Source: Alopecurus myosuroides (Eukaryota > Streptophyta > Magnoliopsida > Poales > Poaceae). From it: a stretch of DNA of 64,000 nucleotides. The DNA lies in NCBI GenBank assembly GCA_028641055.1, contig CM054061.1:34281877-34345876 (forward strand). Reading direction: 5' to 3'. Position 1 is the first letter of the stretch. The number at the start of each line of letters is the position of its first letter. A model generated the notes under the pieces. It saw only the letters and a program-made list of their open reading frames with translations, ran no database searches and had not been told where the DNA came from. Shown here one piece after another: positions 11,862 through 55,382 of this stretch. Position numbers and translations under genes: made by a program.

Positions 11862-12440
11862 GCCTTTAGTCCCGGTTGGTGGTCCCCTGGGGTACCCTCC
11901 GCGGGCCTTTTGTCCCGGTTGGTGTCACGAACCGGAACTAAACGTGCACTTTTTTCGTCCCGTTTTCGTTCCCGCGCAGAACGAGCCTTTAGTCCCGGTT
12001 CCTGACACGAACCGCGACTAAAGGTGCTTATTCAAATACTTTTCCTTTTTCCCAAACTTAAAAGTACAAATAATATATCAGAAAATTCAGAAAAATAAAA
12101 CTAATTCTTTTTCCAATCTTAAAAATACAAATAATATATCAGAAAATTCAGAAAAATAAAACTAATTATTTTTCCAATCTTAAAAATACAAATAATATAT
12201 CAGAAAAATCAGAAAAATAAAACTAATTCTTTTTCCAATCTTTAAAATACAAATAATATATCAGAAAATTCATAAAAATAAAACTAATTCTTTTTAAAAT
12301 CTTAAAAATACAAATAATATATCAGAAAATTCAGAAAAATAAAACTAATTCTTTTTAAAATCTTAAAAATAAAAATAATATATCAGAAAATTCAGAAAAA
12401 TAAAACCCCTTTAGTCCCGGCATGTTTTACCAACCGAGAC
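11862..12440. repeat. internal CACTA subterminal-type motifs flanking a 61-bp tandem repeat
   Basis: TTTAGTCCCGGTT and its inverse recur at about 11866, 11908, 11990 and 12411. Between them (about 12050-12408) a 61-bp AT-rich unit containing ATAATATATCAGAAAATTC is repeated nearly six times with few changes. Such motifs normally sit next to CACTA ends, so their presence in the middle of A hints at a nested or fused element. Confidence 0.7.
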
Positions 12441-17398: not shown

Positions 17399-20300
17399 TC
17401 AATTCTTCCGTCGTGTCCCCGCTTTCTTATGATTTTGCCGTATCCATGGAGCATCCTCATCATTTAACTTAATGCTTGGGTCAGTGTTCACTTTGAAGGG
17501 CTGAATTTCACCAAACATATTATAATCTTCTGACATGTCTGTCTTGTCCTCCACTCCCACGATGTTTCTTTTCCCTGAAAGAACAATGTGGCACTTTGGA
17601 TCATCGCATTATGTACTGATCGTTTTCTTATCTTTCCATTTCATCGGTTTGCTACTCATGTCATTCAAATAGAAAACCTGAGCGACATCTTTGGCTAGGA
17701 CAAATGGTTCGTCAAGGTAACCAAGATTGTCGAAATCCACCATTGTCATTCCGTATTGCTCGTCCACCTTTACCCCACCTCCTGTTAGCTTGAACCATTT
17801 GCACCGGAACAAAGGGACCTTAAAGGAGGGTCCATAGTCAAGTTCCCATATCTCCTCTATGTAACCATAATATGTGACCTTTTGCCCAATCTTGGTTGCT
17901 GCATCAAAGCGGACAACACTGTTTTGGTTGGTGCTCTTTTTATCTTGGGAGATCGTGTAAAATGTATTCCCATTAATCTCGTACCCTTGGAAAGTCGTTA
18001 TAGTCGAAGATGGTGTCTTGGCCAACATGTACAGCTGATCTCCAACATCATTGTCATTCATTAAATGTTTTCGCAACCAACTGCCGAAAGTCTCCATGTG
18101 GGCCTTTCTAATCCATGATTCAGGCTTCCCCGGGTTGTCCGAGCGTAAAATATTCTTGTGTTGCTCGAAGTACGGAGCCACCAAGCTCGAATTTTGCTGA
18201 ACTGTGTGGTGTGCTTCAGTCATAGAATGACCGTCCATACATATCGTTGATTTCCTTCCGATCGTGCCTTTTCCACTTAGTCTCCCCTCGTGCCGCGATT
18301 GAGGAATACCAATCGGCTTAAGGTCAGGAACATAGTCAATACAGAACTCAATTACGTCCTCATTTCCATAGCCCTTTACGATGCTTCCTTCTGGCCTAGC
18401 ACGGTTACGAACATATTTCTTTAATACTCCCATAAACCTCTCAAAGGGCAACATATTGTGTAGAAATACAGGACCGAGAATGGAAATCTCTTCGACTAGA
18501 TGGACCAGGAGGTGCGTCATAATATTGAAGAAGGATGGTGGAAACACCAACTCGAAACTGACAAGACATTGGACCACATCGTTCTGTAACCGTGGTAGAT
18601 CTTCTGGACTGATTACCTTCTGAGAGATTGCATTGAGGAATGCACATAGCTTCACAATGGCTACTCGAACATTTTCCGGTAGGAGCCCCCTCAAAGCAAT
18701 GGGAAGCAATTGCGTCATAATCACGTGGTATTCGTGAGACTTCAGGTTTTGGAACTTTTTGTCCGCCATGTTTATTATTCCCTTTATATTCGACGAGAAG
18801 GCAGACGGGACCTTCATACTGCTCAGGCATTAAAAAAAATGACATTCTCTTCTTTGGTAAGAGCGTAGCTGGCACGACCTTGAAACCATTCCGGATGCCG
18901 GTCATCTGGGTCTTTCAAAAGTTGCTGGTCCTGCCGTGCTTCCTTTGTATCATTTGTCTTCCCATACACGCCCAAGAAGCTTAGCAGGTTCACGCAAATA
19001 TTCTTCGTAACATGCATCACGTCGATTGCAGAGCGGACATCTAGGACTTTCCAATACTGTAGCTCCCAAAATATCGATTTATTTTTCCACATGGGTACGT
19101 GCCCGTCAACTCCCAGCGGAACTGATTGTCCGCCAGGACCCTTTCCAAAGATGACTTTCAAATCCTTGACCATATCAAATACCTCAGCTCCAGTACGTTC
19201 CGCAGGCTTCCGCCGGTGATCTGCCTTGCCGTTGAAATGCTTGCCTTTCTTTCTTACGGTATGATTTCGCGGAAGAAATCGACAATGACCCAGGTACACG
19301 TTCTTCCTACAATTATCCAAAAATACACTTTCAGTCTCATGTAAGCAGTGCGTGCATGCTTTGTATCTCTTATTTGACTGTCCCGAAAGGTTACTGAGAG
19401 CAGGGCAATCGTTGATGGTTACAAAAAGCAACGCTCGTAGGTCAAATTCCTCTTCTTTGTGCTCATCCCACACAGGTACACCAGGTCTGCCCCACAACTG
19501 TAAAAGTTCATCAACTAATGGCCTTAGGTACACATCGATGTCGTTCCTGGATTGCTTCGGACCTTGGATAAGCACTGGCATCATAATGAACTTCCGCTTC
19601 ATGCACAAGCAAGGAGGAAGGTTGTAGATGCATAGAGTCACGGGCCAGGTGCTATGGCTGGAGCTCTGCTCGCCAAAAGGATTCATGCCATCAGTACTTA
19701 GACCAAATCTTATGTTCCTTGCGTCAGCTGCAAAATCTTTGAACTCTCTGTCAATTTTTCTCCATTGCGTTCCATCAGCGGGGTGTCTCAACTCCCCGTC
19801 GGACTTACGGTCCTCTTTGTGCCATCGCAACAACTTGGCATGCTCTTTGTTCCTGAACAGGCGTTTCAACCGAGGTATTATATGAGCATACCACATCACC
19901 TTGGTGGGAACCCTCTTCCTGGGTTTCTCGCCCTCAACATCGTCACCAGGGTCATCGCCTCTGAAGTTATAACGCAATGCAGTGCATACTGGGCATTCAT
20001 TCAAATTCTCGTATGCACCGCGGTAGAGGATGCAGTCGTTAATGCATGCATGTATCTTCAGAACCTCTAAACCTAGAGGGCAGACAACCTTCTTTGCTTC
20101 GTACGTACTAGCGGGCAACTCGTTATTCTTCGGAAACATTTTCTTCAACATTTTCAGCAAATTTTCAAATGATGAGTCAGATACACCTTCCCGTGACTTC
20201 CATTTAAGCAAATCCAGTGTGCAGCCCAGCTTTTTCAGACTATTGTCGCATCCTGGGTACAGCGACTTCGTGTGATCCTCTAACATGCGATCCAAATTCT

Positions 20301-20733
20301 CCCTCTCCTTGTCAGTTTCGCGGCGTCTCCGTGCATCAGCAATGGTCCGACCAAGATCATCAGCGGGCTCATCATGTGCCTCTTCTTCACCTTCACCAAA
20401 CCCTTCCCCACCTCCAGCATCATCCTCCATGAAAGTATCACCGAAAGCGTCATGATAGATGAAATCGATATCATCCTCTTCTTCATCTTCTTCCATTCTA
20501 ACCCCTTTTTCTCCATGCTTGATCCAACAATTATAGCTTCGCATGAAACCGTGCCGAAGCAGGTGCATGTGAACGACTTTTGAGGAGGAGTGACCCTTCT
20601 CATTCTTACATTCAGCACATGGACAGATAATAAAACCTCGCTGCTTGTTCGCATTTGCCACTACGAGGAATTCTTTCAAACCCGTAGTGAACTCGCCGGA
20701 GATTCGGTTACCGTACATCCATTGCCGATTCAT
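17399..20733 (-). pseudogene. CACTA A transposase (TNP2 type), broken by a frameshift and a stop
   Basis: Translation starts best at the ATG at 20733 (MNRQWMYG), which follows a CAG splice acceptor. The order is: transposase-associated domain with a CPCAEC zinc-type motif (about residues 5-75), an acidic linker, the TNP2 catalytic region (Transposase_21; GLSTDGMNPF and DVMHVTKN motifs), then the DUF4218-type region (LKSHEYHVIMTQLLP, FPPSFFNIMTHLLVHL) and the DUF4216-type region (FRCKWF, YLDEPFVLA). The frame shifts at an eight-base A/T run (18832-18839) and an in-frame TAA sits at 17609-17611. The same frame then continues for 69 codons to a TGA at 17399. The protein would bind the CACTA termini and excise the element. 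As it stands it is inactive. Confidence 0.93.
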
Positions 20734-21030
20734 CTGCATTATTATTATATAAAGTATATACTTAACCATCATGCATTTGTTAAACTAACTAGCTGGAAAT
20801 AATACAAATCATGAAAGGTTCAAGTTGCTAACCGCGACCGCGGAGGTAAAATAAATGAAAATCCTCAAGTGCGGCTCGGACACTTCATATCATGTGTGTT
20901 TCATGCTATCGGGCATTTCATCGAACACCTTGTGTGCATAGTAGGAAACAAAAGCAAACCCACCACCACTTGTGAATATTGTGATTAGAAGTGACACCAA
21001 ATGTGGCAAAGTGCAGCCAGCTGAGCCCTA
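20734..21030 (-). promoter_or_regulatory. leader, first intron and promoter of the CACTA A transposase
   Basis: Non-coding. The CAG acceptor borders 20733, and CTATATATAGG at 21027-21037 on the minus strand is a good TATA box just inside the subterminal repeats, where transposase promoters of CACTA elements normally lie. Confidence 0.5.
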
Positions 21031-21542
21031 TATATAGGGATGGGCTTTTAGTCCCGGTTGGCCTGGACAACCGCGACTAATAGCCTTCGGGGCAGCCTGA
21101 GGACCTATTAGTCCCGGTTGGCCTGGCCAACCGGGACTAAAGCCCCTCCCGTCCGCCAGCTGTGGACCGAGCGTTGGTCGCGGGTCTCGTCCCGAACCGC
21201 GACTAAAGACTCCTATAGTCGCGGGACGATTATTTTGGGGACTAATGGGGGCGTATGGAAGGCCTATTTTCTACCAGTGTATATAGGGATGGGCCTTTAG
21301 TCCCGGTTGGCCTGGCCAACCGCGACTAAAGTCCTTCGGGCCAGCCTGAAGACCTGTAGTCCCGGTTGGCATGGCCAACCGGGACTAGAGCCCTCCCGTC
21401 TGCCAGCTGTCGACCGAGCGCGCTGGGCCCAGATAGTTGGTCGCGGGTCTCGTCCCAAACTGCGACTAAAGACCCCTTTGGTCGCGGTTCGATTATTTTG
21501 GGGACTAATGGGGGCGTATGGAAGCCTCTTTTTCTACTAGTG
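21031..21542 (-). repeat. tandemly duplicated right terminus of CACTA A
   Basis: 21031-21279 and 21280-21542 are two diverged copies of the same terminal segment. Each begins TATATAGGGATGGG, contains TAGTCCCGGTTGG/CCAACCGGGACT inverted motifs, and ends in a CACTA-type terminus. The outer one is CACTAGTAG and the inner one has decayed to CACTGGTAG. AAA follows the outer end. Confidence 0.88.
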
Positions 21543-21579: not shown

Positions 21580-22062
21580 ACATTTTTTGTTAGACTCAAA
21601 AAACAGTTTCCATTGAGCTGATACAGTCTGAGAGCCAACACCCGACCTCTGCACAGTGGTGCGGACAGCCGCAAATAATTGGTAGAATAGAGGATTGTGA
21701 AGACAGAGGACTCATTAGGATAGTGAAATGATCATACATGACATTGGAAAAAGACTCTAGTAATGGTGGATCTATCTGAAAACTTTGCCGCCGCCAATGC
21801 GGGGTAAAAATATCCTTCGCCACAAGCTCCAGACGCAAAGAAACCTCTGTAGAGAGGACGTCGTGTTCCCGTTTTTAACGAATAAACCACGGCCGAAGAT
21901 AGGTAGCACACTGAAAAATAACCTGCATGGGAGAAGAATGTTTAGCGTTAGAAACCTTGTCATTTGTACATACCCATAGCGACAATCCATGCGATCTATG
22001 CCATACAACCAGTTAGCAAAACTATTAGCAACATAGCGTGGCAGATTCATAGTCGAACCCAT
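21580..22062 (-). pseudogene. LINE ORF2 C-terminal fragment, inverted
   Basis: On the minus strand, broken frames resemble the C-terminal zinc-binding region of plant L1-type LINE ORF2: a VANSFANWLYGID segment, a later NDKV...SSPMQVIF block, then LELVAKDIFTPH. At least one frameshift separates them. A run of six A at the minus-strand end (near 21580) may be a poly-A remnant. It points away from the LINE fragment that follows. Confidence 0.5.
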
Positions 22063-22289
22063 TGGATGACTAATTGAAATGGGAGAATATCTGTTTAATT
22101 ATATTCCCGTCATGGTGACAGAAGCAAATATTTGTACTTTCTTTCCTTATGCTCTTTACGAGGTTTTCTTTGGTTAGAAATACCAATTGACCATATAAAT
22201 ATCTTAATTTGAAGTGGCACATTTTTTTTAAAATGTGTTTATTGTTGATGACTGGCACATTACAATGGCCTAATGAGGTTTACATGGAT

Positions 22290-24130
22290 TCCACTGAAAA
22301 TTTACCATTTTCATGTATATTTCATTGGATTTTTTATGAAGAATTTGATCTAAATTTAATTCGTCTGCTGGAAAGTACCCGATGGCTTGCGATAGCTAGG
22401 GTTCATTGTGATAAAGGCTCTAGCCACGAGGACTTTTTCCTGCAGATGCGAGCTGCATGGAACCCGGCCAAGGAGGTTTCGATTCGGCAGGTAGGAGTTA
22501 AACGCTTTGTGATTCAGTGCTATTTCTTAGGGGACTGGGAGAAAATTACTGAGAGAGGGTCGTGGCTGTTTCGGGAGTGGCCAGTGGTGATTGCTCCGTA
22601 TGATGGATTATCGGACCCTGATGAGGTGGAACTAAATCTCATGCCAATTTGGATACATGTTCATAAAATACCTGAAGGTTACAGACAACAATCCATAGTG
22701 AAACAGTTGATTAGTCGCCAGGCTGGAGAGGTGATGGAGATTCAGATGGTACCGCCCGGAATTTTTAGAGGTGATTATGTTCGGGTTAGAATCAAACAAG
22801 ATGTCCGTACGGCGTTAACTAGATTTTTTCTATTTCTCTTGGAAGGAAGAGATCGATTTTTGAAGTCAAATACGAAAATTTGGGCATGCTTTGCTTTGCA
22901 TGTGGCAGAATTGGACACACCTATAAGGAGTGTGGGATTGGGGTTTATGAAGACAAGGATCTAAAATTCGGTGAATGGATTCACGCTGACGGCTGGCGGT
23001 CTCGAGATGGAGGGGGGTACGTGGTGGTTTAAGGGGTGGAGGTGGAAGAAATCACGCAGCATGTCGTGGTGCTTCCCCCGACAGAGGGCAACCTTATGAT
23101 TGGAGGGCACATCCGGAGAGACCCCTGGTTGTTTCGGAGGAGCTAAAAGATACGGCTACTAGTCCAATCAAACCCACTGATCAGCACATGTTGGATATGG
23201 AGAAGAATGCACGGAAATGTCTCGCTTTTGAGCAGGAGAACAAAAAGACCAATGAGGTACTCATGATCTCTTATAAAGGATATGCAGAAGAACAACCCCC
23301 CCAACAAAATAGTGGTGGCAAAGCACAAGAGGTGAAGGAGAAGAAACAACACAAAGGGGGAGATGGCTCCTCCTTTTCTGCAAATTCTAATGGATCGGCG
23401 GCATCCCTCGAGGGTGACCGCCGGGTCCAATGAGTATCCTATGTTTGAATTGTCGAGGGTGTGGGCGGCTGGAGACAATTCATGAGATATGCAACTTAGT
23501 TAAGTTGCACCGCCCAAGGTTGGTCTTTCTCTCGGAGACCAAGCTAAGTGATACGAGAGCGCAAGAGGTGAGAGGAAGATTGGGCTTTTCCAATGCTTTC
23601 GGTGTGAAGAGTGAAGGGTTGAGTGGAGGGGTTTAGAGAGACCATTGATCTCTGTGGCTTTGAAGATTTGGTTTTTTGGGTTTGCCCTATACTTGGCACA
23701 ATAGACAGCAAGGTGGAAGCAATATCAAGGTGAGATTGGATAGGGGTTTGGCGGATCTTAATTTCATGGAACTGTTTGATAATACCATGGTGACACACAT
23801 TCAAACTACACAGAGTGACCATTGTGCTCTTTTCATTTAGATTCGGAAATCTGATTGGTGTGGAGTGGAAGGGGGACATAAACCCTTTTGGTTTGAAAAA
23901 TCATGGATGAGACATCAAAGTTATGCGCAAACGGTGGAATCGATATTAACCACGGATGCTGCCTCCCTCGATCGCATTGCTTCTGTTCATGGCAACGCGC
24001 GGCAGGGGCTAAACAATTGGAGTAGGGAGGAATTAGGTTCGGTACACAAACAGTTGAAGACCCTCAGAAGAAGATTGGAGGAAATTTGGAGGGATTCTCT
24101 CGGCACGGGTCCTTCAAGAGCTGAGCTACA
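22290..24130 (+). pseudogene. LINE (L1-type) ORF1 and ORF2 start, decayed
   Basis: ORF1 shows a DUF4283 domain (WLAIARVHCDKGSS, LGDWEKITERGSWLFREWP, then PYDGLSDPDEVEL). A CCHC knuckle with [10 protein letters not shown] follows, broken by a short duplication near 22895. ORF2 starts near 23430 with the endonuclease motif LCLNCRGCG and FLSETKLSD. An internal deletion follows 23630, with further stops, then LDRGLAD and the SDH-type motif at 23814. It stops abruptly at about 24130, where macrosatellite sequence begins. RT and later domains are missing. It is dead. Confidence 0.8.
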
Positions 24131-27100
24131 GTATGATTATATGTACTTCATAATTAAACATAATAATTTAAACTAACCACAACGGCCATTCAAATTATTA
24201 ACGTAACTATAAATTTCACATTCATATGGTTTGATCTATTTTATCGTTTAAATTTGTTTGATATTATCTAATGTACTCAATTACCCATGTAATTTTCTCA
24301 ACTATAAATTTGTACATGCTATTAAAACTAGATAGTTAGTTATCATACCTATTCACTCTAATAAAAAAATCATGTGTGGTCACCATCTTGTGTTTTCTAT
24401 GAGTAAACCATGTTCGTTTCTTCGTACCATATACACAATTTATGGTGAGGACTTCCAGAAAATACACATCTGCCCTTGGGGGCATCTGCCCTGGGGGCAT
24501 CTGCCTCGTTTTAAAAAACAGGAATTAGTGTAATCGAGCGTGTCGATCGTCGCGTGGTGTGGATCCTTTCGTCGCCTGCACAAAACGAGCTACGTTGCTT
24601 TACTAGGCTACATTGAGATGGGATTAGGCTGGCTAAGGAGAATCTCCGTTCCGACTCACCCATGGTGCTGCGGCCCGAGCCCGTTGGTGGGCCCGGCGTT
24701 CCTCGCTGTGGATGAGAAAAAAGTTGATCGACGGGCTCTTTGCGTCGCCGGAGGCGCCCACCTAGCCCTGGCACGGGTTCGTTATGATGGGAGAGGGGGC
24801 AGTGACGATGGAGCTCACACCGTCGACGGTGGTTCGTGGCGGGGCGAGGTCGTCGGAGCGCTCGGCGAGGGCCACAGGTGGCGGGTAGTTGGAGCGCTCG
24901 GCGAGGGCCACAGGTTCCGGTTCGTCAGAGCGCTCGGCAAGGCCCACGGGTGGCTGTTCGTCGGAGCGCACGACGAGGTCGTTGTGGCGCTCGGCGAGGG
25001 CCGCAGGTGGCTGGTCGTCGAAGCGCTCGGCAAGTGCCACAAGAGGTTAAATTGAAGTGTTAAATTATCATGTTATTTCTCTTAAGTGTGTTTTACAAGT
25101 TATATTCTTTCCAATAATAATCCCACCATATGATTATATGTACTTAATAATTAAACATAATAATTTAAACTAACCACAACGGCCATTCAAAGTATTAACG
25201 TAACTATAAATTTCACATTCATATGGTTTGATCTATTTTATCGTTTAAATTTGTTTGATATTATCTAATGTACACAATTACCCATGTAATTGTCTCAACT
25301 ACAAATTTCTACATGCTATTAAAACTAGATAGTTAGTTATCATACCTATTCACTCTAATAAAAAAATCATGTGTGGTCACCATCTTGTGTTTTCTATGAG
25401 TAAACCATGTTCGTTTCTTCGTACCATATACACAATTTATGGTGAGGACTTCCAGAAAATACACATCTGCCCTTGGGGGCATCTGCCCTGGGCGCATCTG
25501 CCCTGGGGGCATCTGCCTCGTTTTAAAAAACATGAATTAGTGTAATCGAGCGTGTCGATCGTCGCGTGGTGTGGATCCTTTCGTCGCCTGCACAAAACGA
25601 GCTACGTTGATTTATTAGGCTACATTGAGATGGGCTTAGGCTGGCTAAGGAGAATCTCCGTTCCGACTCACCGATGGTGCTGAGGCCCGAGGCCGTTGGT
25701 GGGCCCGGTGTTCCTCGCTGTGGATGATAAAAAGGTTGATCGATGGGCTCTTTGCGTCGCCGGAGGCGCCCACCTAGCCCTGGCACGGGTTCGTTATGAT
25801 GGGAGAGGCGGCAGTGACGATGGAGCTCACAGCGTCGACGGTGGTTTGTGGCGGGGCGAGGTCGTCGGAGCGCTCGGCGAGGGCCACAGGTGGCGGGTAG
25901 TTGAAGCGCCCGGCGAGGGCCACAGGTTCCGGTTCGTCAGAGCGCTCGGTAAGGCCCACGGGTGGCTGTTCGTCGGAGCGCACGACGAGGTCGTTGTGGC
26001 GCTCGGCGAGGGCCGCAGGTGGCTGGTCGTCGAAGCGCTCGGCAAGTGCCACAAGAGGTTAAATTGAAGTATTAAATTATCATGTTATTTCTTTTAAGTG
26101 TGTTTTACAAGTTACATTCTTTCCAATAATAATCCCACCATATGATTATATGTACTTAATAATTAAACATAATAATTTAAACTAACCACAACGGCCATTC
26201 AAAGTATTAATGTAACTATAAATTTCACATTCATATGGTTTTATCTATTTTATCGTTTAAAGTTGTTTGATATTATCTAATGTACACAATTACCCATGTA
26301 ATTTTCTCAACTATAAATTTGTACATGCTATTAAAACTAGATACTTAGTTATCATACCTCTTCACTCTAATAAAAAAATCATGTGTGGTCACCATTTTGT
26401 GTTTTCTATGAGTAAACCATGTTGGTTTCTTCGTACCATATACACAATCTATGGTGAGGATTTCCGGAAAATACACATCTGCCCTTGGGGGCATCTGCCC
26501 TGGGGGCATCTGCCTCGTTTTTAAAAACAGGAATTAGTGTAATCGAGCGTGTCGATCGTCGCGTGGTGTGGATCCTTTGGTCGCCTGCACAAAACGAGCT
26601 ACGTTGCTTTACTAGGCTACATTGAGATGGGCTTAGGCTGGCTAAGGAGAATCTCCGTTCCGACTCACCGATGGTGCTGCGGCCCTAGCCCGTTGGTGGG
26701 CCCGGCGTTCCTCGCTGTGGATGAGAAAAAGGTTGATCGACGGGCTCTTTGCGTCGCCGGAGGCGCCCACCTAGCCCTGGCACGGGTTCGTTATGATGGG
26801 AGAGGGGGCAGTGACGATGGAGCTCACAGCGTCGACGGTGGTTTGTGGCGGGGCGAGGTCGTCGGAGCGCTCGGCGAGGGCCACAGGTGGCGGGTAGTTG
26901 GAGCGTCCGGCGAGGGCCACAGGTTCCGGTTTGTCAGAGCGCTCGGCAAGGCCCACAGGTGGCTGTTCGTTGGAGCGCACGACAAGGTCGTTGTGGCGCT
27001 CGGCGAGGGCCGCAGGTGGCTGGTCGTCGAAGCGCTCGGCAAGGGCCACAAAAGGTTAAATTGAAGTGTTAAATTATCATGTTATTTCTTTTAAGTGTGT

Positions 27101-30100
27101 TCTACAAGTTACATTCTTTCCAATAATAATCCCACCATATGATTATATGTACTTAATAATTAAACATAATAATTTAAACTAACCACAACCGCCATTCAAA
27201 GTATTAATGTAACTATAAATTTCACATTCATATGGTTTTATCTATTTTATCGTTTAAAGTTGTTTGATAGTATCTAATGTACACAATTACCCATGTGATT
27301 TTCTCAACTATAAATTTGTACATGCTATTAAAACTAGATACTTAGTTATCATACCTCTTCACTCTAATAAAAAAATCATGTGTGGTCACCATCTTGTGTT
27401 TTCTATGAGTAAACCATGTTGGTTTCTTCGTACCATATACACAATCTATGGTGAGGACTTCCGGAAAATACACATCTGCCCTTGGGGGCATCTGCCTCGT
27501 TTTTAAAAACAGGAATTAGTGTAATCGAGCGTGTCGATCGTCGCGTGGTGTGGATCCTTTGGTCGCCTGCACAAAACGAGCTACGTTGCTTAACTAGGCT
27601 ACATTGAGATGGGCTTAGGCTGGCTAAGGAGAATCTCCGTTCCGACTCACCGATGGTGCTCCGGCCCGAGCCCGTTGGTGGGCCCGGCGTTCCTCGCTGT
27701 GGCTGAGAAAAAGGTTGATCGACGGGCTCTTTGCGTCGCCGGAGGCGCCCACCTAGCCCTGGCACGGGTTCGTTATGATGGGAGAGGCGGCAGTGACGAT
27801 GGAGCTCACAGCGTCGACGGTGGTTTGTGGCGGGGCGAGGTCGTCGGAGCGCTCGGCGAGGGCCACAGGTGGCGGGTAGTTGAAGCGCCCGGCGAGGGCC
27901 ACAGGTTCCGGTTCGTCAGAGCGCTCGGTAAGGCCCACGGGTGGCTGTTCGTCGGAGCGCACGACGAGGTCGTTGTGGCGCTCGGCGAGGGCCGCAGGTG
28001 GCTGGTCGTCGAAGCGCTCGGCAAGTGCCACAAGAGGTTAAATTGAAGTGTTAAATTATCATGTTATTTCTTTTAAGTGTGTTTTACAAGTTACATTCTT
28101 TCCAATAATAATCCCACCATATGATTAAATGTACTTAATAATTAAACATAATAATTTAAACTAACCACAACGGCCATTCAAAGTATTAATGTAACTATAA
28201 ATTTCACATTCATATGGTTTTATCTATTTTATCGTTTAAAGTTGTTTGATATTATCTAATGTACACAATTACCCATGTAATTTTCTCAACTATAAATTTG
28301 TACATGCTATTAAAACTAGATACTTAGTTATCATACCTCTTCACTCTAATAAAAAAATCATGTGTGGTCACCATTTTGTGTTTTCTATGAGTAAACCATG
28401 TTGGTTTCTTCGTACCATATACACAATCTATGGTGAGAATTTTCGGAAAATACACATCTGCCCTTGGGGGCATCTGCCCTGGGGGCATCTGCCTCGTTTT
28501 TAAAAACAGGAATTAGTGTAATCGAGCGTGTCGATCGTCGCGTAGTGTGGATCCTTTGGTCGCCTGCACAAAACGAGCTACGTTGCTTTACTAGGCTACA
28601 TTGAGATGGGCTTAGGCTGGCTAAGGAGAATCTCCGTTCCGACTCACCGATGGTGCTGCGGCCCTAGCCCGTTGGTGGGCCCGGCGTTCCTCGCTGTGGA
28701 TGAGAAAAAGGTTGATCGACGGGCTCTTTGCGTCGCCGGAGGCGCCCACCTAGCCCTGGCACGGGTTCGTTATGATGGGAGAGGGGGCAGTGACGATGGA
28801 GCTCACAGCGTCGACGGTGGTTTGTGGCGGGGCGAGGTCGTCGGAGCGCTCGGCGAGGGCCACAGGTGGCGGGTAGTTGGAGCGTCCGGCGAGGGCCACA
28901 GGTTCCGGTTTGTCAGAGCGCTCGGCAAGGCCCACAGGTGGCTGTTCGTTGGAGCGCACGACAAGGTCGTTGTGGCGCTCGGCGAGGGCCGCAGGTGGCT
29001 GGTCGTCGAAGCGCTCGGCAAGGGCCACAAGAGGTTAAATTGAAGTGTTAAATTATCATGTTATTTCTTTTAAGTGTGTTCTACAAGTTACATTCTTTCC
29101 AATAATAATCCCACCATATGATTATATGTACTTAATAATTAAACATAATAATTTAAACTAACCACAACCGCCATTCAAAGTATTAATGTAACTATAAATT
29201 TCACATTCATATGGTTTTATCTATTTTATCGTTTAAAGTTGTTTGATATTATCTAATGTACACAATTACCCATGTGATTTTCTCAACTATAAATTTGTAC
29301 ATGCTATTAAAACTAGATACTTAGTTATCATACCTCTTCACTCTAATAAAAAAATCATGTGTGGTCACCATCTTGTGTTTTCTATGAGTAAACCATGTTG
29401 GTTTCTTCGTACCATATACACAATCTATGGTGAGGACTTCCGGAAAATACACATCTGCCCTTGGGGGCATCTGCCCTGGGGGCATCTGCCCTGGGGGCAT
29501 CTGCCTCGTTTTTAAAAACAGGAATTAGTGTAATCGAGCGTGTCGATCGTCGCGTGGTGTGGATCCTTTGGTCGCCTGCACAAAACGAGCTACGTTGCTT
29601 AACTAGGCTACATTGAGATGGGCTTAGGCTGGCTAAGGAGAATCTCCGTTCCGACTCACCGATGGTGCTCCGACCCGAGCCCGTTGGTGGGCCCGGCGTT
29701 CCTCGCTGTGGCTGAGAAAAAGGTTGATCGACGGGCTCTTTGCGTCGCCGGAGGCGCCCACCTAGCCCTGGCACGGGTTCGTCATGATGGGAGAGGGGGC
29801 AGTGACGATGGAGCTCACAGCGTCGACGGTGGTTTGTGGCGGGGCGAGGTCGTCGGAGCGCTCGGCGAGGGCCACATGTGGCGGGTAGTTGGAGCGTCCG
29901 GCGAGGGCCACAGGTTCCGGTTCGTCAGAGCGCTCGGCAAGGCCCACAGGTGGCTGTTCGTTGGAGCGCACGACGAGGTCGTTGTGGCGCTCGGCGAGGG
30001 CCGCAGGTGGCTGGTCGTCGAAGCGCTCGGCAAGGGCCACAAGAGGTTAAATTGAAGTGTTAAATTATCATGTTATTTCTTTTAAGTGTGTTTTACAAGT

Positions 30101-33100
30101 TACATTCTTTCCAATAATAATCCCACCATATGATTATATGTACTTAATAATTAAACATAATAATTTAAACTAACCACAACGGCCATTCAAAGTATTAATG
30201 TAACTATAAATTTCACATTCATATGGTTTTATCTATTTTATCGTTTAAAGTTGTTTGATATTATCTAATGTACACAATTACCCATGTGATTTTCTCAACT
30301 ATAAATTTGTACATGGTATTAAAACTAGATACTTAGTTATCATACCTATTCACTCTAATAAAAAAAACCATGTGTGGTCACCATCTTGTGTTTTCTATGA
30401 GTAAACCATGTTCGTTTCTTCGTACCATATACACAATATATGATGAGGACTTCCGGAAAATACACATCTGCCCTGGGGGGCATGTGCCTCGTTTTTAAAA
30501 ACAGGAATTAGTGTGATCGAGCGTGTCGATCGTCGCGTGGTGTGGATCCTTTGGTCGCCTGCACAAAACGAGCTACGTTGCTTAACTAGGCTACATTGAG
30601 ATGGGCTTAGGCTGGCTAGGGAGAATCTCCGTTGCGACTCACCGATGGTGCTGCGGCCCGAGCCCGTTGGTGGGCCCGGCGTTTCTCGCTGTGGATGAGA
30701 AAAAGGTTGATCAACGGGCTCTTTGCGTCGCCGGAGGCGCCCACCTAGCCCTGGCACGGCTTCGTCATGATGGGAGAGGGGGCGAGTATGATGGAGCTCA
30801 CAGTGTCGACGGTGGTTTGTGGCGGCGCGAGGTCGTTGGAGCGCTCGGCGAGGGCCACAGGTGGCGGGTAGTTGGAGCGCCCGGCGAGGGCCAGAGGTTC
30901 CGGTTCGTCGGAGCGCTCGGCGAGGTCCACCGGTGGCTGTTCGTCGGAGCGCACGACGAGGTCGTTGTAGCGCTCGGCAAGGGCCGCAGGTGGCTGGTCG
31001 GCGAAGGGTTCGGCAAGACCCACAAGAGTTTAAATTGAAGTGTTAAATTATCATGTTATTTCGTTTAAGTGTGTTTTACAAGTTATATTCTTTCCAATAA
31101 TAATCCCACCATATGATTATACGTATTTCATAATTAAATATAATAATTTAAACTAACCATAACGGCCATACAAAGTATTATTGTAACTATAAATTTCACA
31201 TTCATATGGTTTGATCTATTTTATCGTTGAAACTTGTTTGATATTATCTAATGTACACAATTTCCCATGTAATTTTATCAACTATAAATTTGTACATGCT
31301 ATTAAAACTAGATACTTAGTTATCATACCTATTCACTCTAATAAAAAAAATCATGTGTGGTCACCATCTTGTGTTTTCTTTGAGTAACCATGTTCGTTTC
31401 TTCGTACCATATACACAATCTATGGTGAGGACTTCCAGAAAATACACATCTGCCCCTAGGGGGCATCTGCCTCGTTTTAAAAAACAGGACTTAGTATGAT
31501 CGAGCGTGTCGATCGTCGTGTGGTGTGGATACTTTGTTCGCCTGCACAAAACGAGCTGCGTTGCTTAACTAGGCTACATTGACATGGGCTTAGGCTGGCT
31601 AGGGAGCATCTCCGTTCCGACTCGCCGATGGTGCTGCGGCCCGAGCCTGTTGGTGGGCAAGGCGTTCCTCGCTGTGGATGAGAAAAAAGTTGCTCGGCGG
31701 ACTCTTTGCGTCGCTGGAGGCGCCCACCTGGCCCTGGCACGACTTCGTCATGATGGGAGAGGGGGCGGGGACGATGGAGCTCACAGTGTCGACGGTGGTT
31801 TGTGGCGGGGAGAGGTCATCGGAGCGCTCGGCGAGGGCCACAGGTGGCGGGTAGTTGGAATGCCCGGCGAGGGCTAGAGGTTCCGGTTCGTCGGAATGCT
31901 CGGCGAGGTCCACCGCTGGCTGTTCGTCGGAGCGCACGACGAGGTCGTTGTAGCGCTCGGCGAGGGCCGCAGGTGGCTGGTCGTCGAAGCGCTCGGCAAG
32001 GGACACAAGAGTTTAAATTGAAGTGTTAAATTATCATGTTATTTCGTTTAAGTGTGTTTTACAAGTTACATTCTTTCCAATAATAATCCCACCATATGAT
32101 TGTATGTACTTTATAATTAAACATAATAATTTAAACTAACCACAACGGCCATTCAAAGTATTAATGTAACTATAAATTTCATATTCATATTGTTTGATCT
32201 ATTTTATCGTTTAAATTTGTTTGATATTATCTAATTTACACAATTACCCATGTAATTTTCTCAACTATAAATTTGTACAAGCTACTAAAACTAGATACTT
32301 AGTTATCATACCTATTCACTCTAATAAAAAAAAACTCCTGTGTGGTCACCATCTGGTGTTTTCTATGAGTAAACCATGTTCGTTTCTTCGTACCATATAC
32401 ACAATCTATGGTGAGGACTTCCAGAAAATACACATCTGCCCCAGGGGGCATCTGCCCTGGGGGGCATCCGCCTCATTTTAAAAAACAAGAATTAGTGTGA
32501 TCGTGCGTCGATTGTCGCGTGGTGTGGATCCTTTGGTCGCTTGCACAAAACGACCTACGTTTCTTTACTAGGCTACAATGAGATGGGCTTAGGCTGGCTA
32601 GGGAGAATCTCCGTTCCGACTCGCCGAAGGTGCTGCGGCCCGAGCCCGTTGGTGGGCCCGGCGTTCCTCCGTGTGGATGAGAAAAAGGTTGATCGACGGG
32701 CTCTTTGCGTCGCCGGAGGCGCCCATCTGGCCCTGGCACGGCTTCGTCGTGATGGGAGAGGGGGCGGGGACGATGGAACTCACAACGTCGACGGTGGTTT
32801 GTGGCGGGGCGAGGTCGTCAGAGAGCTCGGCGAAGGCAACAGGTGGCGGGTAGTTGGAGCGTCCGGCGAGGGCCAGAGGTTCCGGTTCGTCGGAGCGCTC
32901 GGCGAGGCCCACCGGTGGCTGTTCGTCGGAGCGCACGACGAGGTCGTTGTGGCGCTCGGCGAGGGCCGCAGGTTGCTGGTCGTCGAAGCGCTCGGCAAGG
33001 GCCACAAGAGTTTAAATTGAAGTGTTAAATTATCATGTTATTTTGTTTAAGTGTGTTTTACAATTTACATTCTTTCCAATAATAATCCCACCATATGATT

Positions 33101-34029
33101 ATATGTAATTAATAATTAAATATAATAACTTAAACTAACCACAACGGCCATACAAAGTATTAATGTAACTATAAATTTCACATTTATATGGTTTGATCTA
33201 TTTTATCGTTGAAACTTGTTTGATATTATCTAATGTACACAATTTCCCATGTAATTTTCTCAACTATAAATTTGTACAAGCTATTAAAACTAGATACTTA
33301 GTTATCATACCTATTCACTCTAATAAAAAAAATCCTGTGTGGTCACTATCTTGTGTTTTCTATGAGTAAACCATGTTCGTTTCTTCGTACCATATACACA
33401 ATCTATGGTGAGAACTTCCGGAAAATACACATCTGCCCCGGGGGGCATCTGCCCTGGGGGGCATCTGCCTCATTTTAAAAAACAGGAATTAGTGTGATCG
33501 AGCGTGTGGATCGTCGCGTGGTGTGGATTCTTTGGTCGACTGCGCAAAACGAGCTACGTTGCTTTACTAGGCTACATTGAGATGGGCTTTGTCTGTCTAG
33601 GGAGAATCTCTGTTCCGACTCGCCGGTGGTGCTGCGGCCCGAGCCCGTTGGTGGGCCCAACGTTCCTCGCCGTGGATGACAAAAAGGTTGATCGACGGGC
33701 TCTTTGCATCGCCGGAGGCGCTCACCTGGCCCTGGCACGGCTTCGTCATGATGGGAGAGGGGGCGGGGACGATGTAGCTCACAGCGTCGACGGCGGTTTG
33801 TTGCGGGGCGAGGTCGTCGGAGCGCTCGGCGAGGGCCACAGGTGGCGGATAGTTGGCCGGCGAGGGCCAGAGATTCCGGTTCGTCGAAGCGCTCGGTGTG
33901 GCCCATGGGTGGCTGTTCGTCCGAGCGCATGCACGGCGAGGTCGTTGGGGCGTTCGGCGAGGGCCGCAGGTGTCTGATCGTCGAAGCGCTCGACAAAGGG
34001 CCACAAGGGTCGGTGCGTGGGAGCGCACG
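24131..34029. repeat. macrosatellite array of about 1-kb units
   Basis: Using the ATGGG(A/C)TT anchor, units start at 24618, 25630, 26627, 27609, 28606, 29618, 30601, 31584, 32583 and 33582, spaced 1012, 997, 982, 997, 1012, 983, 983, 999 and 999. Each unit has an AT-rich half of about 410 bp, a 15-bp minisatellite (CATCTGCCCTGGGGG type, 2 to 4 copies), and a GC-rich half made mostly of 36-bp repeats. The GC half is open in several frames on both strands, giving frames of up to about 145 codons on the plus strand and 92 on the minus strand. I regard these as by-products of the 36-bp period, not genes. The array starts mid-unit against the LINE fragment and its last unit is interrupted by a hAT element. 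Confidence 0.95.
24840..25047. repeat. 36-bp minisatellite in the GC half of each unit (first copy)
   Basis: A 36-bp motif around GGAGCGCTCGGCGAGGGCC is repeated about five times, with one shortened copy. In one frame it gives a 12-residue period (VGALGEGHRWRV type), and on the other strand an ALAERSDD type. The same block recurs in every unit, about every kilobase, up to 34 kb. Confidence 0.9.
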
Positions 34030-35329
34030 CAGGGCCGGTCCAATAATATTCCGGACCCGGGGCAAGTTAAGCCAATATATTTATATCAAATTCTTATAAT
34101 ATAATATAACTTATTTTTATTATTTTACAATCTTATAAGTGTATATTCTCAATATAGTTAACACATTTAACTTAATTCTTTTTTTATTGCATCTATCTTT
34201 CTTGTACAAAAAAATGCACATTCAAAATACATTTTAGTTTTTTTAATCTAAATATTTTGTGAAGAAAAATATGTTAGTTTTTGTTTTTTTGCACATATAC
34301 TAAAGTTGTAAAACAAGTTGCGCACCTCTTCATTTTTGGAAGTTGAATTTATACTATCTATAACATTTTGGGAGACATATCTATTGAGTCTATTCTAACA
34401 AATATCTTATATAGCAGTTTCAAGTGTATCGCTAGATCAGAAAATTTATGAAGACTTCTAGAGGTTAAATTGAAGTGTTAAATTATCATGTTATTTCGTT
34501 TAAGTGTGTACTTCTTACAAGTTACATTCTTTCCAATAATAATCACACCATATGATTATATGTACTTAATAATTAAATATAATAATTTAAACTAACCACA
34601 ACTGTCATACAAAGTATCAATGATTCTATAAATTTCACATTCATATGGTTTGATCTATTTTATCGTTGAAACTTGTTTGATATTATCTGGAGTACTTCGT
34701 TATCATACCTTTTATTCACTCTAATAAAAAAAATCCTGTGTGGTCACCATCTTTTGTTTTTTATGAGTAAACCATGTTGGTTTCTTGGTTCCATATACAC
34801 AATCTATGGTGAGGACTTCCTCCTAACTAACAAATAAACTTATCTTACCAGCTTCGTAATTTCTTGGCCCATTGAGCATGCCATGTTAGACCATCCTTTA
34901 TGACTGCTATAGTCCCTTGATGTGGCTTTTTCGGTGTCACAGCCAGTTGGCATCGAGTGCCGACCACCATTGTAGCCATATGTGACAATCATTATGTTGC
35001 CAAAACACCAGGCGCACAACCGAATGTTGGTGTAATTCATCATTTTTTTTTCTACATCGTCATTTGATTAGTAATCACCATCGATTTTATTGTCATGGAA
35101 ATCCTCTTTATGGTGTACCACCTAGGACACATTGATGGTGTTGCGTGTCCTAAGAGTGTTGTTCTTACTCTCGTTGTGAGATTTGAACTGTCTGGCCTTT
35201 GTGTGTTTCCTTTGTTTTTTCCTTGGACCAAATGTACTAAATATATAGATGTATTAATTTGGTTAGGCCCCCCTACAACTCAGGGGCCACGACGGTCGCC
35301 CCTCTGCCCCGCCATCTAGGCCGGCCCTG
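34030..35329. mobile_element. non-autonomous hAT-type transposon
   Basis: The ends are CAGGGCCGGTC and GGCCGGCCCTG (inverted). Both sides are flanked by the 8-bp direct repeat AGCGCACG (34022-34029 and 35330-35337), diagnostic of hAT insertion. It has no transposase. It lies in the GC half of the last macrosatellite unit, which resumes at 35338. Confidence 0.9.
34459..34821. repeat. macrosatellite AT-half copy inside the hAT element
   Basis: From AGAGGTTAAATTGAAG to GGTGAGGACTTCC the sequence follows the array's AT-rich half in the same orientation, with point changes and one deletion of roughly 60 bases. It is flanked on both sides by hAT-specific DNA. Confidence 0.88.
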
Positions 35330-35337
35330 AGCGCACG

Positions 35338-35644
35338 GAAAGTGCGTCTGAGCTCGTGGTGAGGACGTCGGAGTGCTCGTCAAGGGCGTTGGAGCGCACT
35401 ACGAGTGCATCTCAACTCCCGGTGAGGTCGTCGGAGCACTCGGCGAGGGCCGCAGTTAGCGGGTCATCGGAGCGCTCGGCAAGGGCCACAAGTACGGCGA
35501 TGCGGGTGTCAGAGCGCACGGCGAGTGCGTCTGAATGCGCGAGAGTGTCGGAACGCACGATGAGTGCATCCGAGCCCAGGACGATGTGCTGGGGAACTGG
35601 GGGTGGTGACGAGGTTGGCGCCCGCTCGGAGCGGCGGACCTGTT
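35338..35644. repeat. diverged end of the macrosatellite GC half
   Basis: The 36-bp-type motifs (TCGGAGCGCTCGGCAAGGGCC and variants) continue after the hAT element but are more diverged. CACTA D interrupts them at 35645. Confidence 0.8.
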
Positions 35645-36002
35645 CACTAGTGGAAACAGGGCTTCTGGTCCCGGTTTTTAAGGGCTATTCGTCCCCGTTG
35701 CTCAACCGGGATGGAGACCCCGGGGAAATGCCCCCCCTCTCTCCATTAGTCTCGGTTGTGTTAAAAACGGGATGAATGGGTCCTCCACGTGGGCGCTTAG
35801 GGATTGGCCCCTAGCCAGGACCATTTGTCCCGGTTCTTAACACCAACCGGTATAAATGCTGCCGCTCCCGCGGCAGATTTTTTCTTTCTATTTCTTATTT
35901 TCCTTTCAGGGTTTCGTATGTTATATTCCATTTTATTAGCGAGCAATTGGGGGGAAGAAAGTACTCTTTTCCCCCTGTAGTCTCTGTCCCAATCAATAAG
36001 AT

Positions 36003-36156
36003 GTATGAGCTAGGGCCCCAAGCGATATGGCGGCCACAACCTCCGCCGTAGTAGGCACTGGGGGAGAAGAGGCTGCCCCGACCGATTGGGAAGCAGGCGC
36101 GATGCTCTTTTTCTCACTGGCGCGAGGGGAAGCCGTAGTAGGCACCGAGGGAGAAG
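36003..36156 (-). other. CACTA D internal duplicated motif
   Basis: GGCAGCCTCTTCTCCC followed by GGTGCCTACTACGG occurs twice here, and its first half recurs at 42371-42395 across the solo LTR. It was a short tandem repeat split by that insertion. Open on the minus strand, function unknown. Confidence 0.45.
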
Positions 36157-39100
36157 TGTGGGGACCCAACACTAGCAGTCCGAGACCTCCAGTATGCATA
36201 CATTCACGATCCCATGATCAGTCAGTCGTGAACAACATACTCGAGTTGGCATTGCAGATTACAACATCCACTACACGAATACACGGCTTACACAACTGGT
36301 CAAATGACTCAGTTGAAAACAACTGCCACGCAGGGCAGGAAAACACACTAAACAGCGGAAGTCTACACAACACACTCGTGGTAAACCCAAGTCATGCCTT
36401 GACTACCTACAGGCTACTGACTCGGAGACGTTCCTAGCTCGCACAGCCGTCAGCGACACCATCTTCTTCTGGTTCTCCGGGTTTGTGCTCAAAGTCTGGC
36501 TAAGGCAATAGCCAGGGACGCAACCATTGTGATAACATTGGAATGTACTCCGCAAGACACCCCAAATGAAAGCTAAACATGCAAGTATGCATATATATAG
36601 GTGGTAGGAAGGCTTTAATTAGGGTTCAACTAGCCATGATAAATTTAACACCCATAATAGTTGCACAAGTTTTATTTTTCTTTGTTGAAGAAGATATTTC
36701 AAAGGATATTTCATTTCTCTTGTAGATATAGCATGTCCACAAGGTTTTGATAAAGCATTTTAACTAGAATAAAAGTTTCTCTTTGCAAAACTTCTTGGAA
36801 GATCACATCTTCAAGATCACCATTTATCCGGTACCTCAAAGGTACAATCATTCCCTTTCAACGTACCTCCCAGGTTCAAGTTCCAAAACACTTTTACATC
36901 TTTTTTGAAAACATTGACACAATGCTAGCTACATGGCCATTCAACTGTCCATATTCGAGGACGCGACTATTCTGAATAGTTTTACTCTGCAGAGGTGTAC
37001 ACAATCCACAAGATCAAGTACATCCGCCGTGAACAACCACGGACTGTCCGAGACAGTATGCAAACATTGGATAACTGGTCCTAACCATCCACTATGTCAG
37101 CGCTAGTAAATGACAACCTCTTCAACTGGGTTTGTTCTCCCCGGCACCGAATGAGTCAGCCGTATCGATCCGGTTTCCCCTGACAACACACCGCCATGGC
37201 AGGAGACCCAATTGCTGCAACCGGTAGTGAACTTAATCCTACATTGTGAATGTCCCGTTTCTCCCTCCTGGCGACAATTCGGTTCGGGGGACTCTAACCC
37301 CTATAGCACTTTGAGGTAGGCACGGACTAACACCGACCAGCAATTAGCTAGACCTCGTTCCCATATTGAGGTAATGTGGCAGCACAGCTTGGTTGTCCGG
37401 CGAAGACTAGGTTATGTGTCATTTTTGGAAAACAAGTCGAAAACATTTCCTTCTTCACAAACCTCCCTCGGACAAGGTCCCACCCTTCCTCGGGGTTTTT
37501 CCAAGCTTTTGTTTTCCAAAAAAATCAAGTTAAAATGTCCACTAGGGGACTTCAGTTGATTAAGTGATGATACTAAAATGTCTAAAGATCTTGGTAACAC
37601 CAAGATTATATAGTGGATATAGCATATTAGATACATAAAAATAGATATTGGTATAGTCCACTAAAAGAATAGTTTTTTTTTTTAATCAAACTTTTGTAAA
37701 ACTTCAGAAGTAAAACATGCATGATAGATAATGATAAGTAAAACAACAGCAAGCATTTATAGTGGCTTGCCTTGGCACTGGTCTTGGTCTTGCTCTTGAA
37801 ATAAACAAGAGTTGCAATAAAAACCTCTCTGGGAAATAATATTGTCTTCGTTATCTAACGTCGTAAACTCAAAAAGGAAAACACCCAATCAGAACCAAAC
37901 AAAGGCAATCACTTGAAAAAAAGTAAACATACAGCAAGTATTTCATCAAACAAGTACACTCACAAACAATGGTAATAGGGTGCACACCATCAAGCAAAAC
38001 AGGCACAGACAATACACACGAATAACACTAGAATTGATGTTATGGATCCTCAACCAAAATGGCATGAGTCCAGTGGGTGTGCCACTCTCATATCATGCTC
38101 GAATAAGGTTAAATGACTCTCTGGTCATTCATGAGGATGAGAAAAATAACAAGAAAACAACCTAGGAACACATACACATGCATAGGAAAATATTAACAAG
38201 CAATACTACAAGCTCATAGTAACACATGCTTTTCTAAACATGGAGAAATAGTATAACCAGTACCTAAGCAACCTAATAACAGAGACAAATCAATACCAAA
38301 CATATCATGGCATCACTCAATACATGAAAATAATCATGGAGCAAAAGACTACTAAAACTAGAGATGCAAAAGGGCCATTTAGACATGCATACATGCATAA
38401 CAATACTAGATCATCAAACATGATTTATTCTAGCATGATGGATCTGTAATATAGGGTCCAAGTAACAGAGAAAACAACACCTAAGCATCCTAGTAATCTC
38501 AAAATAACCATCTCATTAATGCCTAAAAAATTAAGCATGTAAATAACCACATATGGCATAAAATCATCTATAACTATCATAGCATGGCAAATTTTATCTA
38601 GAGATCACTCAAGCATGTAAGAAAGTATAATATGCTATAATAACAGTAGCTATGCTAGGGAAAACAATACTAAAGCATTTATAAAAGTCGTCATACCCAT
38701 AAGGAGAAAAACAAGATTTATCCTAATATTACAAGGAAAACAACCCTATTGAAATATACTATAACAACATGCTTTTCACACACATTTTATTAACATGATA
38801 ATGATACACTCAAAACACAAATCAAACATGTATTGATACCCTACACATTCTAGGAATCAAATTTATAACAAGAACATGATAACACAACAATTTATCAAGT
38901 CATATCAATAAAAGGCAGAAAAGGACTATTTACTAATTAATGCACCAAACCAATACAAGTGGATTCACATCAAAAATCATGAGAATCTAGTAAAAGGTGC
39001 TACTAGTCACTATCAAACCAATACAAGTGGATTCACATCAAAATTGATCACCAATAAAATTAAACAATTCATAGAAGTGCTTTCTGGTCTAAAATTAACA

Positions 39101-42964: not shown

Positions 42965-43393
42965 TGATGGAGGGATGATAACCCGGTAGGATAATGCCAA
43001 GGTGTAACTCGGCCCAAAGGGAACCGTGCAAGACCCGGCTCAACGAAGAGGAGTTTCTAGAAGGCCCAAGAACTAGCGTAGGCCTTATAACCCGGCTTTT
43101 GGGGTTACTATTAGGAAACTTAGGGTTTGTATGCGGTTACTAGGTAGGACTCCGAGTGTGCCTTGGATAGGAAGCCAGGGAGCCGGGTAAGATATAAACC
43201 GGCTCCTAGGGTCAGGAAAACAGAGTTTCACCAGATATTTGAGTATCCCCTGTAATACGAGAGTTGAGATAGTAACCCTAGATCGGAGACTCGGCGACTT
43301 GATTGCCAGAGCTACCAGATCGATTAACACCAGAGTCAAATTGTCCCAAGATAAGTTACCCCCGGTAACATCTGCCGTGATTATCCCACGACA
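42965..43393 (+). repeat. 5' LTR of the Tat element
   Basis: Begins TGATGGAGGG, ends CCACGACA. It is shorter than the 3' LTR because 36 bases are missing after 43322 (AGATCGATT). Confidence 0.95.
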
Positions 43394-43395
43394 GT

Positions 43396-43413
43396 TGGCA
43401 CCCGCCGTGGGGC
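43396..43413 (+). other. primer binding site of the Tat element
   Basis: TGGCACCCGCCGTGGGG begins two bases after the 5' LTR. The TGG start complements a tRNA CCA end. I have not assigned the tRNA. Confidence 0.7.
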
Positions 43414-43457
43414 CTACGTCCAAGGGTGTTTACATCACGGGAGAAGCTCGGGAGAGC

Positions 43458-46400: not shown

Positions 46401-46766
46401 TCCACAGTTTTTCACGGGATTGTGCCGGGTCACTCGGCGTGCCCCGAAGGAAAGATTACATTGGAGGTCGCTTTTGGAGAATCAAAGGACAATTTCCGAG
46501 TAGAGTGGCTCACGTTCGAGGTGGTAAAACTGCGCAGCCCTTATCACGCGCTGTTTGGAAGGCCGGCTTACGCCAAGTTCATGGCCAGGCCATGTTACGT
46601 ATACCTACAGCTAAAGATCCCGGGTCCCAAGCAAACCATTACTATACATGGGAACCGGGTTATAGCATCTCAAGTAGACCCGGATGACAGAACAACATTG
46701 AAGAGGCACAGGATACCAAGATGGTGGCCTTTGTCGAAGGTGATCCCTCCAAGCAATTTTCTATAG
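43458..46766 (+). pseudogene. gag: Tat gag-protease, three lesions
   Basis: The first good ATG after the PBS is at 43458. One frame runs to 46766, broken by TAG at 43845-43847 and TAA at 45159-45161. The leading part is low-complexity and acidic. A coiled-coil-like stretch (44200-44330) precedes an A/P/Q-rich region. The capsid domain (LWLNNLPEKSINSW...IKHFHG) starts near 45228. A knuckle-like CPRYSRNGRPANHSLEQC lies at about 45858. The protease shows LMDGGSSINILY at about 46316. The frame then runs out at 46766, while RT is read in another frame beginning about 46700, so a frameshift separates protease from RT. Confidence 0.88.
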
Positions 46767-55367: not shown

Positions 55368-55382
55368 TATTTTGGGGACTAC
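55366..55382 (+). other. polypurine tract region of the Tat element
   Basis: TTTTGGGGACTAC abuts the TGATGG start of the 3' LTR, the usual Tat-type plus-strand primer context. Confidence 0.6.

What the first reader, a model, noticed from the sequence alone, without database searches (positions are those of the whole stretch)
24131..34029. Macrosatellite whose unit length moves in 15-bp steps
Anchor spacings of 1012, 997, 982, 997, 1012, 983, 983, 999 and 999 are accounted for by the number of CATCTGCC copies in an internal 15-bp minisatellite (4, 3, 2, 3, 4, 2, 2, 3, 3): length is about 952 + 15n, within two bases. So the large unit evolves almost only through a tiny nested repeat while the rest stays length-stable. 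That suggests strong homogenisation of the large unit. I do not recognise this repeat family.
Basis: seen in the sequence. Interest (0 to 1): 0.78.

Follow-up and report, generated by a model that had tools for sequence, protein, structure and literature searches.

The report
One-kilobase grass repeat with nested minisatellite
A run of about ten one-kilobase DNA repeats in a grass genome varies in length almost only through a tiny repeat inside each copy, and its edge suggests that it began when a mobile element landed in a GC-rich sequence and the pair was then duplicated; it is an ordinary kind of repeat with an unusually readable history.

Summary
Ten GC-rich unit bodies lie at 24131-34007; the nine unit-to-unit spacings are 997, 1012, 997, 982, 997, 1012, 983, 983 and 999 bp. 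With the CATCTGCC minisatellite string removed, each is 966 or 967 bp. A second, 36-bp internal repeat shows no copy-number step. The inference of strong homogenisation is only partly right: indels are about as rare in four other repeat pairs of this window (5 per 126 substitutions) as in the array (7 per 177 variable sites). Exchange shows in other ways: U3-U4 resembles U5-U6, U4 is a mosaic of U6-like and U2-like sequence, and divergence rises towards the right edge.

Its interior carries the AT-rich part of the unit in the same orientation, starting at the unit's GC/AT junction. I read the unit as a chimera of hAT interior and GC-rich flank, tandemly duplicated, with the right edge keeping the founder arrangement. 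No grass DNA collection answered, so family name, copy number and chromosome location stay open.

The parts
24131..34007 (+). Tandem array: truncated AT part, then 10 GC-rich bodies separated by 9 AT-rich segments
24467..24505 (+). Minisatellite of U1, n=3
25464..25517 (+). Minisatellite of U2, n=4
26476..26514 (+). Minisatellite of U3, n=3
27473..27496 (+). Minisatellite of U4, n=2
28455..28493 (+). Minisatellite of U5, n=3
29452..29505 (+). Minisatellite of U6, n=4
30465..30488 (+). Minisatellite of U7, n=2 (second copy CATGTGCC)
31447..31471 (+). Minisatellite of U8, n=2
32433..32472 (+). Minisatellite of U9, n=3 (third copy CATCCGCC)
33430..33469 (+). Minisatellite of U10, n=3
30042..30454 (+). 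Example of the AT-rich segment (27% GC) that matches the hAT interior; same segment at 25042-25453, 26054-26465, 27051-27462, 28033-28444, 29030-29441, 31025-31436, 32008-32422, 33007-33419
29442..30041 (+). Example of the GC-rich body (63% GC) with the minisatellite at its left end and the 36-bp internal repeat
34008..34029 (+). 22 bp of GC-rich sequence after U10, absent from the other units; its last 8 bases are the left target-site duplication
34030..35329 (+). hAT-type element of 1,300 bp, ends CAGGGCCGG, flanked by AGCGCACG on both sides
34460..34820 (+). hAT interior homologous to the unit's AT-rich segment (about 90-93% identical in two pieces; about 64 bases of the unit segment are missing between them)
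35330..35644 (+). Right target-site duplication (35330-35337) and continuation of the GC-rich host sequence (66% GC), with one more 36-bp-type match at 35421-35490
22380..24131 (+). Decayed 5' half of an L1-type LINE (DUF4283 ORF by Pfam; zinc-knuckle and endonuclease-like fragments by eye) ending abruptly at the array

Best explanation
The array is a non-coding tandem repeat whose unit is a chimera. About 410 bp are the AT-rich interior of a hAT-type element without a visible transposase gene, and about 550-600 bp are the GC-rich sequence into which that element had inserted. Inferred order of events: (1) the hAT element inserted in the GC-rich sequence; (2) a tandem duplication joined a point inside the hAT element (after GGACTTCC) to a point upstream in the GC-rich sequence, 10 bp before the minisatellite; (3) in an inner copy a deletion of about 452 bp (counterpart of 34008-34459) removed the hAT left end, with 2 bp shared at the junction; (4) that shortened unit spread by unequal exchange and conversion to at least nine copies; (5) the right edge, U10 plus the whole hAT element, kept the founder arrangement. 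Inside each unit the 15-16 bp CATCTGCC repeat gains and loses copies by replication slippage independently of the large unit. Shown here: anatomy, length accounting, dimer pattern, U4 mosaic, hAT ends and target duplication, module homology. Inferred: the order of events, and slippage as the process. I see no molecular function.
For: Length accounting: 966 or 967 bp in 9 of 9 spacings once the minisatellite is removed. U3/U5 differ at 4 and U4/U6 at 11 of 872 sites; among U3-U6, 10 sites show U3=U5 against U4=U6 and none show U3=U4 against U5=U6. U4 switches from U6-like to U2-like: 8 of 2,000,000 shuffles reach the observed statistic; 4 of 345 scored triplets (of 360) pass Bonferroni, 3 with U4 and 1 with U6 as child. 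Distance grows with separation (Mantel r 0.46, p 0.0017). The hAT element has matching 9-bp ends and a perfect 8-bp duplication. Within the array its interior matches only the AT segment, in 9 of 9 full segments and the truncated one, in array orientation, beginning at the junction AGAGGTTAAATT that abuts GC sequence in the units. hAT left part, hAT interior and unit AT segment have similar GC content (0.258, 0.280, 0.269). The insertion lies 22 bp from the position where the AT segment starts in the units. hAT, U8 and U10 AT segments fall outside the group of U1-U7 and U9 (support 84/92), and the U10 GC body has the longest branch.
Against: No other copy of the hAT element, and no copy of the GC sequence outside this locus, could be fetched, so which arrangement is ancestral rests on one locus. 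The fork separating hAT from all units is without support, and both tree roots are midpoints. The left edge is cut off inside a LINE, so the founder's left flank is not visible. The hAT right part has another base composition (0.437). A late hAT insertion carrying a captured fragment is not excluded. The identity of hAT interior to units (about 90-93%) is about the same as that between edge units and the rest (91.5-93.8% for pairs with U8-U10), so it does not by itself place hAT as older.
Confidence: 0.58

Rival explanations
1. The array is older than the hAT insertion. The hAT element captured an AT-rich fragment of a unit, here or elsewhere, and later inserted beside U10.
For: The ends and the 8-bp target duplication are intact, as in a plain insertion; the hAT fragment groups near the older units U8 and U10.
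Against: It needs three coincidences: same orientation, insertion 22 bp from the homologous junction, and a captured fragment that starts exactly at the unit's GC/AT junction. The neighbouring hAT left part has the same base composition as the fragment.
Confidence: 0.25
2. The AT-rich segment is an independent dispersed repeat that inserted separately into the hAT element and into the GC-rich sequence.
For: The segment behaves as a module, present without the GC body in the hAT element.
Against: By eye I saw no terminal inverted repeats and no target duplication around it in either context (junctions printed); this was not computed.
Confidence: 0.1
3. The unit belongs to an already described grass satellite of about 1 kb (for example rye B-chromosome D1100), only unrecognised here. 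This concerns the name and is compatible with the origin proposed above.
For: D1100 is 1.1 kb and contains mobile-element fragments (PMC6210368, passages). The window looks like a Pooideae grass: the best named relatives of its CACTA transposase are from barley, wild emmer, Aegilops tauschii and Lolium (best 120 of 1253 listed).
Against: No sequence comparison was possible. About ten copies with a divergent edge does not look like a high-copy satellite block (inference).
Confidence: 0.12

Closest known systems
Satellites derived from non-autonomous DNA transposons (Xstir and miDNA4 in Xenopus; reviews PMC9659126 and PMC12628747, passages read)
   Same: Tandem repeats related to internal transposon sequence; composite structures of element plus array occur (Xstir).
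   Different: Here only part of the unit is transposon interior; most of it is GC-rich flanking sequence, and the element is hAT-type (miDNA4 is Tc1/mariner).
Rye B-chromosome repeats D1100 (1.1 kb) and E3900 (3.9 kb) (PMC6210368, passages read)
   Same: About 1 kb unit in a grass, assembled from fragments including mobile elements.
   Different: Those are high-copy and B-specific; identity to the unit here is untested.
Tandem direct duplications by reversed-ends transposition of Ac elements (PMC3744419, abstract and outline read)
   Same: hAT-family elements can cause tandem direct duplications.
   Different: Those breakpoints carry 8-bp target duplications of Ac/Ds; the array junction here lies inside the element and shows none.
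Rye pSc200 and pSc250 arrays (PMC4857426, start of abstract, passages)
   Same: Grass tandem arrays with dimers and higher multimers, unevenly placed between centre and ends.
   Different: Monomers of a few hundred bp in large heterochromatin blocks (size recalled); no nested minisatellite is mentioned in the passages that I read.

Membership tests
Macrosatellite / large-unit tandem repeat | Head-to-tail units of about 1 kb or more, highly similar | tested here: met
Macrosatellite / large-unit tandem repeat | Tens to hundreds of copies, polymorphic between individuals | not testable with these tools
   Ten GC bodies seen; the genome search gave no answer
hAT transposon (34030-35329) | Short terminal inverted repeats | tested here: met
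   CAGGGCCGG at both ends
hAT transposon (34030-35329) | 8-bp target-site duplication | tested here: met
   AGCGCACG on both sides
hAT transposon (34030-35329) | hAT transposase, in the element or in an autonomous relative with the same ends | not tested
   One search lists no ORF of 150 aa or more within the element; it was not scanned for a transposase domain and no relative was fetched
Transposon-derived satellite | Unit sequence homologous to a transposon | tested here: met
   34460-34820 matches 9 of 9 full AT segments and the truncated one
Transposon-derived satellite | Transposon sequence is ancestral to the array | tested here: inconclusive
   Positional coincidences favour it; the fork that would place hAT outside all units has no support
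Rye D1100 satellite | Sequence identity to D1100 | not testable with these tools
   No grass DNA collection available; only passages about D1100 read
Protein-coding tandem gene | Substitutions concentrated at third codon positions, or protein relatives | tested here: not met
   Variable sites among U1-U9 are 31/36/30 by codon position in one + strand ORF frame; no protein relatives for 2 of 2 unit ORFs searched; no Pfam match for 2 of 2 unit ORFs

The most novel reading that the evidence does not exclude
The locus preserves the birth of a macrosatellite: the founder copy, a hAT element still in its target site in GC-rich DNA, sits whole at the right edge, and the array is made of a hAT-interior/host chimera that lost the element's end and was then amplified, with a fast-changing nested minisatellite marking each unit.
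Probability: 0.5. Interest if true: 0.42.

Novelty: new member of a known kind. Interest (0 to 1): 0.3.

Why it matters
How satellite units are born from transposons is usually inferred after the founder has been lost. If the founder reading holds, this array shows the founder insertion with its target duplication, the chimeric junctions and the amplified derivative side by side, and separates slow unit-level exchange from fast minisatellite change in the same molecule. It would be a useful worked example, not a new principle.

Tried and rejected
Coding array: rejected, since substitutions are even across codon positions in the one frame counted (U1-U9), two unit ORFs have no protein relatives and no Pfam match. 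RNA gene: no Rfam match at the gathering score in 22000-37000. Relatives in other collections: none for unit U4 in plasmids, none for one exact 26-base pattern in viral contigs. Helitron: by eye I saw no CTRR end with a hairpin; not computed. Reversed-ends hAT transposition as cause of the duplication: not favoured, because the array junction lies inside the element and shows no 8-bp duplication. Methylation decay as driver: CpG observed/expected in the GC part is 1.17, with a mild excess of variable CpG sites (35 of 122 against 96 of 416). Length stability as evidence of homogenisation: dropped after the in-window control. That control is small: four pairs chosen by me from the BLAST list, whose ends were set by BLAST and so may miss large indels.

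Corrections made on checking: pair counts with U10, and triplets with U10, included a misaligned tail of U10, because one extra A in U10 near its end was not given a gap; one search masks that stretch of U10 (its last aligned part, from column 1017) and replaces those numbers, and that A is counted as the seventh indel. The trees used their own alignment.

Literature searches (listings) showed no paper that I could match to this repeat; the library holds open-licence papers only and cannot be searched by sequence similarity.

Full report
Observation. The array is real and nearly as described. Aligning the units gives nine spacings of 997, 1012, 997, 982, 997, 1012, 983, 983 and 999 bp, and a tenth GC-rich body ending at 34007. 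Copies of the CATCTGCC unit number 3, 4, 3, 2, 3, 4, 2, 2, 3, 3 in U1-U10, and the rest of the unit is 966 bp in 7 of 9 and 967 bp in 2 of 9. The step is 15 bp in U1-U6, where the first minisatellite copy is 16 bp and later ones 15 bp; in U7-U10 copies are 16 or 17 bp. Outside the minisatellite I count seven indel events: an A-run step shared by U7-U10, +2 and -2 in U9, -1 in U8, and -5, +4 and +1 in U10 (the last by eye). The 36-bp repeat in the GC body (73-81% matches, listed there for U1-U9) shows no copy-number step in the alignment of U1-U10.

Homogenisation. The array has 7 indels to 177 variable sites. Four other repeat pairs in the window give 1 to 14, 3 to 24, 0 to 30 and 1 to 58, together 5 to 126 (the pairs were picked by me and their ends set by BLAST). 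The controls are few, but length stability outside the minisatellite is not exceptional. Exchange between units is shown by other facts. U3 and U5 differ at 4 of 872 sites, U4 and U6 at 11, and the other 43 pairs at 13 to 73. Among U3-U6, ten sites alternate as U3=U5 against U4=U6 and none support U3=U4 against U5=U6, so a two-unit block was probably copied. U4 is U6-like up to column 713, apart from one U2-like site at 654, U2-like from 764 to 1020, and U6-like again at the last informative site, 1044. 8 of 2,000,000 shuffles reach this, and 4 of 345 scored triplets (of 360) pass a Bonferroni limit, three with U4 and one with U6 as child. Mean divergence to the other units is 4.2-5.3% for U1-U6 and 5.9-8.0% for U7-U10. 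The shuffles treat sites as independent.

Minisatellite. On the trees, with an ancestral n of 3, the copy numbers need five single steps (U2, U4, U6, U7, U8). This is my own reading and was not computed. Units U4 and U6, sisters in the AT tree, have n=2 and n=4, so the minisatellite changes faster than the unit; U3 and U5 both have n=3. Slippage is the usual explanation; it is inferred.

Edge of the array. After U10 the GC-rich sequence runs on for 22 bp and is interrupted at 34030-35329 by an element with ends CAGGGCCGG and an exact 8-bp duplication AGCGCACG; the GC-rich sequence then resumes, with another 36-bp-type match at 35421-35490. Such ends and an 8-bp duplication are those of a hAT-type element (general knowledge). 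Its interior, 34460-34820, matches the unit's AT-rich segment at about 90-93% identity in two pieces and in the same orientation, and has no GC body. The match starts at AGAGGTTAAATT, which is where AT sequence abuts GC sequence in the units, and stops at GGACTTCC, 10 bp before the minisatellite. GC content of the hAT left part, the hAT interior and the unit AT segment is 0.258, 0.280 and 0.269; the hAT right part is 0.437. A deletion equal to 34008-34459 would turn the U10 edge into the junction seen in the other units, with a shared AG at the ends (by eye). I therefore favour the founder reading. Against it, only one locus is available, the fork that would place hAT outside all units has no support, and the left flank is lost where a decayed LINE (DUF4283, E 3.1e-15; endonuclease-like fragments by eye) meets U1 at about 24131.

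Nature and function. Variable sites among U1-U9 are spread evenly over codon positions in the + strand frame counted (31, 36, 30). Two unit ORFs have no Pfam match and no protein relatives, although the same database holds many grass proteins, as the CACTA transposase search shows. No RNA family matches in 22000-37000. I see no function; the array is best read as neutral tandem DNA. CpG is not depleted in the GC body (observed/expected 1.17), which does not suggest long heavy methylation.

Known or new. Satellites from DNA transposons are well documented (PMC9659126 and PMC12628747, passages), and a grass repeat of 1.1 kb containing mobile-element fragments is known in rye (PMC6210368, passages). 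hAT elements can cause tandem duplications (PMC3744419, abstract and outline), but the junction here lacks that signature. This is a new member of a known kind. The named family, if one exists, could not be looked up: the genome search failed ten times, and the plasmid and viral collections, where a plant repeat is not expected, gave no match.

Noticed in passing
17609-21542: CACTA-type transposon genes on the minus strand (tnp2 transposase at 18823-20784, DUF4218/DUF4216 ORF at 17609-18829), with duplicated subterminal repeats at 21031-21542 ending in CTACTAGTG; the far boundary was not determined.
   Followed up: partly
42965-55847: LTR retrotransposon: LTR pair 42965-43393 and 55383-55847 (14 substitutions and one 36-bp indel in 465 columns), reverse transcriptase and RNase H ORF at 46688-48742, apparent 5-bp target duplication AGAGT (flanks printed, by eye).
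   Followed up: partly
35645: A CACTA-like end (CACTAGTGGAAACAGGG) starts where the GC-rich sequence stops; its other end was not located.
   Followed up: no
12045-12406: Another tandem array: 61-bp AT-rich unit, 5.9 copies, 95% matches, no indels.
   Followed up: no
protein P0049: A tnp2-type transposase relative is filed under Proteus mirabilis in public sources, perhaps plant contamination of a bacterial assembly.
   Followed up: no
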